Source: Candidatus Woesearchaeota archaeon (lineage in GTDB: Archaea > Nanobdellota > Nanobdellia > Woesearchaeales > GW2011-AR9). From it: DNA of 38,483 bases. Below are positions 30,392 through 30,602 of the stretch, piece by piece. Below the pieces are notes generated by a model. That model was given only the letters and a program-made list of their open reading frames with translations. It searched no databases and was not told the DNA's origin. How positions within the stretch are numbered: the first letter of the stretch is position 1; every line of letters begins with the position of its first letter. The stretch lies in NCBI GenBank assembly GCA_018696595.1, contig JABHQW010000008.1, positions 1 through 38,483 of the forward strand, in the 5' to 3' direction. The position numbers and the translations under genes were made by a program.

Positions 30392-30410
30392 TTAACTGCG
30401 GGGGACGAGA

Positions 30411-30458
30411 CTTTCAAAAAAGTTGCACTTTTTTTAAATCATTAAGTACAACTTAATA
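30411..30458 (-). other. tRNA intron in the T-loop (59/60)
   Basis: 48 nt between G59 (30459) and T60 (30410). A textbook bulge-helix-bulge surrounds it: outer helix is the T-stem, inner 4-bp helix is TTCA (54-57) with intron TGAA (30413-30416), both bulges read AGT, and cutting after the second bulge base gives the canonical T-loop. A 10-bp hairpin AGTTGTACTT/AAGTGCAACT lies within the intron. Confidence 0.88.
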
Positions 30459-30490
30459 CTTGAACTCGCGCATCCACTAAGGAACAAGGC

Positions 30491-30536
30491 GTTTGCAACG
30501 TTAGGCGCGAGCCCCAGAAATCTATGATTTCTCGTG
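30491..30536 (-). other. tRNA intron at the canonical 37/38 site
   Basis: 46 nt between G37 (30537) and G38 (30490). The 3' bulge ACG and 5' bulge GGC fit a relaxed bulge-helix-bulge with an imperfect inner helix (TTG/CAA plus one mismatch). The intron itself folds into AGAAAT/ATTTCT and CGAG/CTCG stems. Exact ends could shift by a base or two. Confidence 0.8.
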
Positions 30537-30602
30537 CCTCAACCTTGCGCATTTGACCACTCTGCCACCCCCGCATAAAAGGTAAAAAGAATAATTTCTT
30601 TA

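What the first reader, a model, noticed from the sequence alone, without database searches (positions are those of the whole stretch)
30397..30574. tRNA-Leu gene with two introns, one in the T-loop at 59/60
The acceptor, anticodon and T stems pair only if two segments are removed: 46 nt at the usual 37/38 site and 48 nt inside the T-loop. The T-loop intron has a near-ideal bulge-helix-bulge (inner helix TTCA/TGAA, both bulges AGT), and precise removal restores TTCAAGT. Multiple and noncanonical introns are known mainly from Thermoproteales; they imply a splicing endonuclease with broad specificity. Two in one small-genome DPANN-like tRNA is notable and will be missed or misfolded by simple tRNA searches.
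Basis: partly seen in the sequence, partly recalled or inferred. Interest (0 to 1): 0.8.

Follow-up and report, generated by a model that had tools for sequence, protein, structure and literature searches.

The report
tRNA-Leu gene with T-loop intron
The window holds the genome's only leucine tRNA(GAG) gene, broken by two introns, and it is one of at least 18 tRNA genes in this Woesearchaeota genome that carry an intron at the same unusual spot, apparently because these introns have spread from gene to gene.

Summary
Confirmed. On the minus strand, 30574..30397, lies a tRNA-Leu(GAG) gene with a 46-nt intron at 37/38 and a 48-nt intron in the T-loop at 59/60. Removing both gives an 84-nt tRNA. 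Its exons match intronless orthologues from two related genomes at 78/84 and 76/84 bases, and the genome has no second copy. The lineage is Candidatus Woesearchaeota (DPANN). The case is not isolated: 18 of 32 tRNA genes I could identify in this genome carry a 59/60 intron. Near-identical introns sit in unrelated isotypes (Gln, Arg, Ser, Met). The window's own intron type recurs in this genome's Leu(TAG) and in Leu(CAA) of a same-genus genome, whose orthologous Leu(CAA) locus is empty here. These are signs of intron turnover and transposition, described so far (in the papers held) for Thermoproteales. The bulge-helix-bulge is ideal only on its 3' half; the 5' side is a relaxed internal loop. 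And no heteromeric endonuclease was found: the genome has one alpha-type splicing endonuclease without the crenarchaeal or ARMAN loop. That conflicts with the published view that relaxed motifs need such enzymes, and is directly testable in vitro.

The parts
30537..30574 (-). tRNA-Leu(GAG) exon 1: acceptor 5' strand, D arm, anticodon stem 5' strand, anticodon GAG, up to nt 37
   Evidence: 100% BLAST piece 1-38 of the spliced tRNA; identical or 2 mismatches to intronless orthologues G051/G034
30491..30536 (-). intron 1, 46 nt, canonical site 37/38
   Evidence: absent from G051 and G034 orthologues; ARAGORN reports a 46-nt anticodon-loop intron, one base shifted
30459..30490 (-). exon 2: nt 38, anticodon stem 3' strand, long variable arm, T-stem 5' strand, T-loop 54-59 (TTCAAG)
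   Evidence: 100% BLAST piece 39-71; alignment to orthologues
30411..30458 (-). intron 2, 48 nt, T-loop site 59/60; TTCA(54-57)/TGAA central helix, 3' bulge AG|T, 11-bp inner helix
   Evidence: folding; homologous introns in own Leu(TAG) and G002 Leu(CAA) with all pairs kept and 4 pairs changed on both sides; absent in orthologues
30397..30410 (-). exon 3: nt 60, T-stem 3' strand, acceptor 3' strand, discriminator A73
   Evidence: BLAST piece 68-84; ARAGORN on spliced form

Best explanation
This is the genome's single, functional tRNA-Leu(GAG) gene. Its transcript is cut at four sites by the cell's tRNA-splicing endonuclease (the alpha-type gene on contig C7), at bulges between the mature stems and helices that each intron forms with the mature loops, and the exons are joined by RtcB (contig C6). 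The 59/60 intron supplies the 3' strand of a 4-bp helix with T-loop nt 54-57, so the T-stem acts as the outer helix of the splice motif. The intron belongs to a class of short 59/60 introns that has spread through the tRNA genes of this Woesearchaeota lineage by copying between tRNA genes (transposition or gene conversion), with gain and loss still going on within a genus. Shown: gene anatomy, uniqueness, orthologous filled and empty sites, intron homology across isotypes, structural conservation, presence of one EndA and one RtcB. Inferred: actual splicing, the alpha4 assembly, the route and direction of intron movement.
For: Spliced form recognised as tRNA-Leu(gag), precursor not. Three-piece unique BLAST match. 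Intronless orthologues 78/84 and 76/84 identical. Homologous 59/60 introns in Leu(TAG) of this genome and Leu(CAA) of same-genus G002; the orthologous Leu(CAA) locus of this genome is empty at exactly that point, with about 1.3 kb of upstream DNA aligning at 72%. Pairing kept 100% over three sequences, with 4 two-sided changes. In 17 tRNA genes of this genome ARAGORN finds nothing before and a full-length tRNA in 14 after removal of the 59/60 intron. All 13 introns scored correctly have 4/4 central pairs. Near-identical 41-42-nt introns in Gln, Arg(TCG), Arg(TCT), Ser(TGA) and Met genes. EndA present once, alpha type. RtcB present.
Against: No RNA data. The 5' side of the 59/60 motif is relaxed, and published work says only (alpha-beta)2 and epsilon2 enzymes remove relaxed motifs efficiently (PMC6379350), whereas only a loop-less alpha gene was found. 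The MFE competes with the splicing-competent register by 1-3 kcal/mol in most of the introns. The intron could have been lost elsewhere rather than gained here.
Confidence: 0.9

Rival explanations
1. Decayed tRNA pseudogene: the two segments are insertions that inactivated the gene.
For: ARAGORN and Rfam tRNA searches do not see the gene.
Against: It is the only Leu(GAG) gene. Exons keep full pairing and 78/84 identity to an orthologue. Both insertions sit at recognised archaeal intron positions with the 3' splice-site bulge in place. The 59/60 insertion shows compensatory changes with its homologues. More than half of the essential tRNA genes found in the genome, initiator Met included, look the same, which pseudogenes cannot.
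Confidence: 0.03
2. The introns are ancestral and vertically inherited; their patchy distribution reflects repeated loss, not transposition.
For: Same-genus G002 has the same intron type at the same site in Gln. Loss by recombination with a spliced copy would be equally precise. Members of the main intron family occur in several families of the order (G054, G050).
Against: Near-identical introns in unrelated isotypes of one genome, while other isotypes of that genome (Phe, Leu(TAA), Leu(CAA)) lack an intron at that site although relatives have one, need copying between genes at some time. Distinct intron sequence families dominate different genomes.
Confidence: 0.2
3. A heteromeric (alpha-beta)2 endonuclease, as in Nanoarchaeum or Crenarchaeota, processes these introns and its beta subunit was missed.
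For: The closest solved chain to the alpha gene is the catalytic subunit of the heteromeric N. equitans enzyme. The T-loop motifs are relaxed on the 5' side.
Against: PF01974 gives one match in this genome even at E<=10, and one clear gene in nearly all of 60 relatives, intron-rich and intron-poor alike. The gene aligns over its full length with the M. jannaschii alpha4 enzyme. The genome is about 97% complete, so a missed gene is possible but unlikely.
Confidence: 0.12

Closest known systems
Multiple and noncanonical tRNA introns of Thermoproteales, with tRNA intron transposition (Sugahara 2008 and Fujishima 2010, as cited in PMC8450103 and PMC4033280)
   Different: Here in Woesearchaeota (DPANN; relatives are groundwater and marine MAGs by their titles, not hyperthermophiles), dominated by one site (59/60), and with a single loop-less alpha endonuclease instead of (alpha-beta)2 with CSL
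ARMAN-2 (Micrarchaeum) epsilon2 endonuclease and its tRNA introns (PMC12397907, PMC4033280)
   Same: DPANN archaeon with introns at various tRNA positions
   Different: The three-unit epsilon2 fusion and the ASL are absent here; the endonuclease is a single alpha unit
Methanocaldococcus jannaschii alpha4 EndA (1a79)
   Same: Full-length sequence match with no insert at the CSL/ASL position
   Different: alpha4 enzymes are described as restricted to canonical BHB motifs (PMC6379350), but here the only endonuclease found meets many relaxed, noncanonical introns
Nanoarchaeum equitans heteromeric EndA (3iey) and split tRNAs
   Same: Closest solved structure of the catalytic subunit; DPANN
   Different: No beta subunit (NEQ261-like) found; the tRNA is intron-bearing, not split

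Membership tests
Archaeal BHB tRNA intron at 59/60 | Removal restores a full tRNA at a T-loop 59/60 junction | tested here: met
Archaeal BHB tRNA intron at 59/60 | Outer helix (T-stem), 3-nt bulge at the 3' splice site, 4-bp central helix | tested here: met
   5/5 T-stem pairs, 4/4 central pairs, AG|T bulge
Archaeal BHB tRNA intron at 59/60 | Strict hBHBh' motif with inner helix stacked on a 3-nt 5' bulge (relaxed hBH forms are also accepted in the family) | tested here: not met
   inner helix reached only across an internal loop; relaxed hBH type
Archaeal BHB tRNA intron at 59/60 | Cleavage by EndA and ligation in the cell | not testable with these tools
   EndA and RtcB genes present; no RNA data
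Canonical 37/38 archaeal tRNA intron | Position one nucleotide 3' of the anticodon, absent in orthologues | tested here: met
Transposed tRNA introns (Thermoproteales type) | Similar intron sequences in different tRNA isotypes of one genome | tested here: met
   Gln/Arg/Arg/Glu/Ser/Met family and the Leu(GAG)/Leu(TAG) pair
Transposed tRNA introns (Thermoproteales type) | Filled and empty states of the same orthologous gene in close relatives | tested here: met
   Leu(CAA): filled in G002, empty in G000, same locus
Transposed tRNA introns (Thermoproteales type) | Direction of movement (gain rather than loss) established | not tested
   no tree-based polarity test was made
(alpha-beta)2 or epsilon2 broad-specificity endonuclease system | Second (beta) unit or fused three-unit gene | tested here: not met
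   one PF01974 gene of 207 aa
(alpha-beta)2 or epsilon2 broad-specificity endonuclease system | CSL or ASL insert with lysine | tested here: not met
   no insert at that position, where 2cv8 and 4fz2 have one

The most novel reading that the evidence does not exclude
A family of Woesearchaeota has undergone a spread of mobile 59/60 T-loop introns through more than half of its tRNA genes, and removes these relaxed-motif introns with a lone, loop-less alpha-type endonuclease. This would break the rule that diversified tRNA introns co-evolve with heteromeric or loop-bearing enzymes.
Probability: 0.5. Interest if true: 0.7.

Novelty: new variant of a known kind. Interest (0 to 1): 0.58.

Why it matters
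tRNA annotation of DPANN genomes is badly incomplete: the standard model sees 16 of at least 32 tRNA genes here, which can be misread as tRNA loss or host dependence. The published view ties diverse tRNA introns to (alpha-beta)2 or epsilon2 endonucleases with special loops (PMC6379350, PMC12397907); this lineage appears to have the introns without the enzyme, a direct test of that idea. The same-genus filled/empty pair offers material for asking how archaeal tRNA introns move. A 59/60 intron also splits the 3' part of the tRNA gene that integrating elements commonly use as attachment site, so a protective role (proposed for tRNA introns in general, PMC3293823) could be tested.

Tried and rejected
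Rfam tRNA (RF00005) and ARAGORN miss the gene. Brute-force deletion with ARAGORN could not fix D-arm intron boundaries because too many solutions pass. The Asp intron was mis-anchored (1248 nt spanning several genes) and is not counted there; one search gives 33 nt. Rfam found no named family in the Trp intron. The T-loop pattern screen has a real background: excess over the reversed control is clear in the own family (165 vs 58 over 46 genomes) but slight in the rest of the order (136 vs 115), so single pattern hits are not counted as introns. The pseudogene and heteromeric-enzyme readings were considered and set aside (see rivals).

Full report
Observation. On the minus strand of the window, 30574..30397, there is a tRNA-Leu(GAG) gene interrupted twice. 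The precursor is invisible to ARAGORN; with the T-loop segment removed it is called tRNA-Leu(gag) with a 46-nt intron, and with both removed it is a complete 84-nt class II tRNA. Intron 1 (46 nt) is at 37/38, intron 2 (48 nt) at 59/60. BLAST of the spliced sequence against the 1.187-Mb genome (97% complete) finds exactly three collinear pieces at this locus and no other Leu(GAG) gene. Two related genomes, G051 and G034, carry intronless Leu(GAG) genes identical to the spliced form at 78/84 and 76/84 positions. A structure-only scan expects 0.05 such loci per shuffled window, so the orthologues are the stronger evidence.

Splice motif. At 59/60 the T-stem is the outer helix, T-loop nt 54-57 (TTCA) pair with TGAA near the 3' end of the intron, and the 3' splice site lies in a 3-nt bulge AG|T. 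The 5' site is less regular: an internal loop separates the central helix from an 11-bp inner helix, and the unconstrained fold extends the central helix by two weak pairs. The 37/38 intron keeps 3 of 4 central pairs (my reading of the sequences). Both are therefore relaxed motifs with a good 3' half, not near-ideal BHBs.

The same thing elsewhere in the genome. Rfam's tRNA model finds only 16 tRNAs at E<=0.001. Using relatives' tRNAs as queries, a T-loop pattern and a covariance model of one intron family, I identified 32 tRNA genes by sequence. Of these, 18 have a 59/60 intron: Leu(GAG), Leu(TAG), Gln, Arg(TCG), Arg(TCT), Arg(CCT), Glu, Thr(GGT), Thr(TGT), Trp, Asp, Ile(GAT), Ile(TAT), Tyr, Ser(TGA), a second Ser, elongator Met and initiator Met. 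For 17 of them ARAGORN finds nothing before removal; after removal of the 59/60 intron alone 14 are full-length tRNAs, 9 with the expected anticodon and 5 with a wrong one because another intron remains. Introns in the D arm and three introns in one gene (initiator Met, Arg(TCG), Arg(CCT), Met) are visible by eye, but their boundaries are not fixed. The inventory is incomplete.

Spread between genes. Introns of 41-42 nt that are nearly identical sit in Gln, Arg(TCG), Arg(TCT), Ser(TGA) and Met; those of Glu and the two Thr genes are related. Relatives carry the same family in other isotypes (Tyr in G001, Phe in G035 and G032, Leu(TAA) in G050, Trp in G018, isotypes read by eye). The window's intron is of a different type, shared with Leu(TAG) of this genome and with Leu(CAA) of the same-genus genome G002. 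All 20 pairs of the proposed structure are kept in the three sequences, with 4 pairs changed on both sides, against 1.7 on average in shuffles, 19 of 500 of which reach 4. In this genome the orthologous Leu(CAA) gene, with about 1.3 kb of upstream DNA aligning at 72%, is empty at precisely that junction. Gain or loss within a genus is thus shown; its direction is not.

Lineage. Exact matches to the main intron family in 84,980 named genomes fall in records titled Candidatus Woesearchaeota or Nanoarchaeota, plus one scaffold filed under Aminicenantes, probably a binning error. The T-loop pattern is in excess over its reversed control in the own family (165 vs 58 hits, 46 genomes) and hardly in the rest of the order (136 vs 115, 47 genomes).

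Machinery. The genome has one PF01974 gene, 207 aa, with the Tyr/His/Lys residues of the catalytic triad conserved in its relatives. No second match appears at E<=10, and nearly all of 60 relatives have one clear gene. It aligns over its whole length with the M. jannaschii alpha4 enzyme and lacks the insert that the Sulfolobus (2cv8) and ARMAN-2 (4fz2) enzymes have at the CSL/ASL position. RtcB is present. A 2019 review states that only (alpha-beta)2 and epsilon2 enzymes efficiently remove relaxed motifs, and a 2025 structure paper ties the loops to intron diversity (PMC6379350, PMC12397907). Either a partner was missed, or loop-less alpha enzymes at moderate temperature are more permissive than thought; a homodimeric Ferroplasma enzyme is reported to cut minimal BHB substrates at 30 C (PMC8707768 abstract).

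Known or new. Noncanonical, multiple and transposed tRNA introns are known from Thermoproteales; noncanonical ones also from Thaumarchaeota (PMC8450103, PMC4033280). In the open-access papers searched I found no report of them in Woesearchaeota; subscription journals were not searchable. I class this as a new variant of a known kind.

Noticed in passing
L092, L101, L015, L195, L196 (contigs C8, C4, C3, C4, C6 of G000): A family of near-identical 41-42-nt 59/60 introns (core ATATCCTTTAGGGAGACTACAAATCTTCCTGAAGATTTGAAAG) in tRNA genes of different isotypes; the hairpin loop ACTACAAA is conserved across genomes more than BHB pairing would require.
   Followed up: partly
L197 (G000:C2:56900-57300, minus strand): The initiator tRNA-Met appears to carry three introns: in the anticodon stem 5' strand, in the T-stem region and in the T-loop.
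   Followed up: no
L097 about 1500-1620 (G000:C3, tRNA-Trp): The 37/38 intron of tRNA-Trp contains box C/D-like motifs (GATGATA ... CCTGA), also seen in Trp of G018 and G025, like the intron-encoded guide RNA of euryarchaeal tRNA-Trp; Rfam gave no match.
   Followed up: partly
L014 (G000:C1:36005-36074 and upstream, minus strand): tRNA-Leu(TAA) has an insertion in the D-arm region right after the acceptor stem; tRNA-Phe (L012) has one in the D-loop.
   Followed up: partly
L147 (JAFCCF010000040.1): A scaffold filed under a bacterial Aminicenantes MAG carries the woesearchaeal T-loop intron motif; probably a binning error.
   Followed up: no
L013 (G000:C7:8225-8317): A tRNA with acceptor and D arm like Val and an apparent GAC anticodon has C instead of T at position 33; ARAGORN calls it Ser(gga). 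Either an unusual loop or another intron register.
   Followed up: no
rows for G071, G022, G054, G051: Other genomes of the order hold their own, different T-loop intron-like sequence families in several copies (for example AATATAAGGGG...CCCCTTATCAACCCC in G071), suggesting independent bursts.
   Followed up: no
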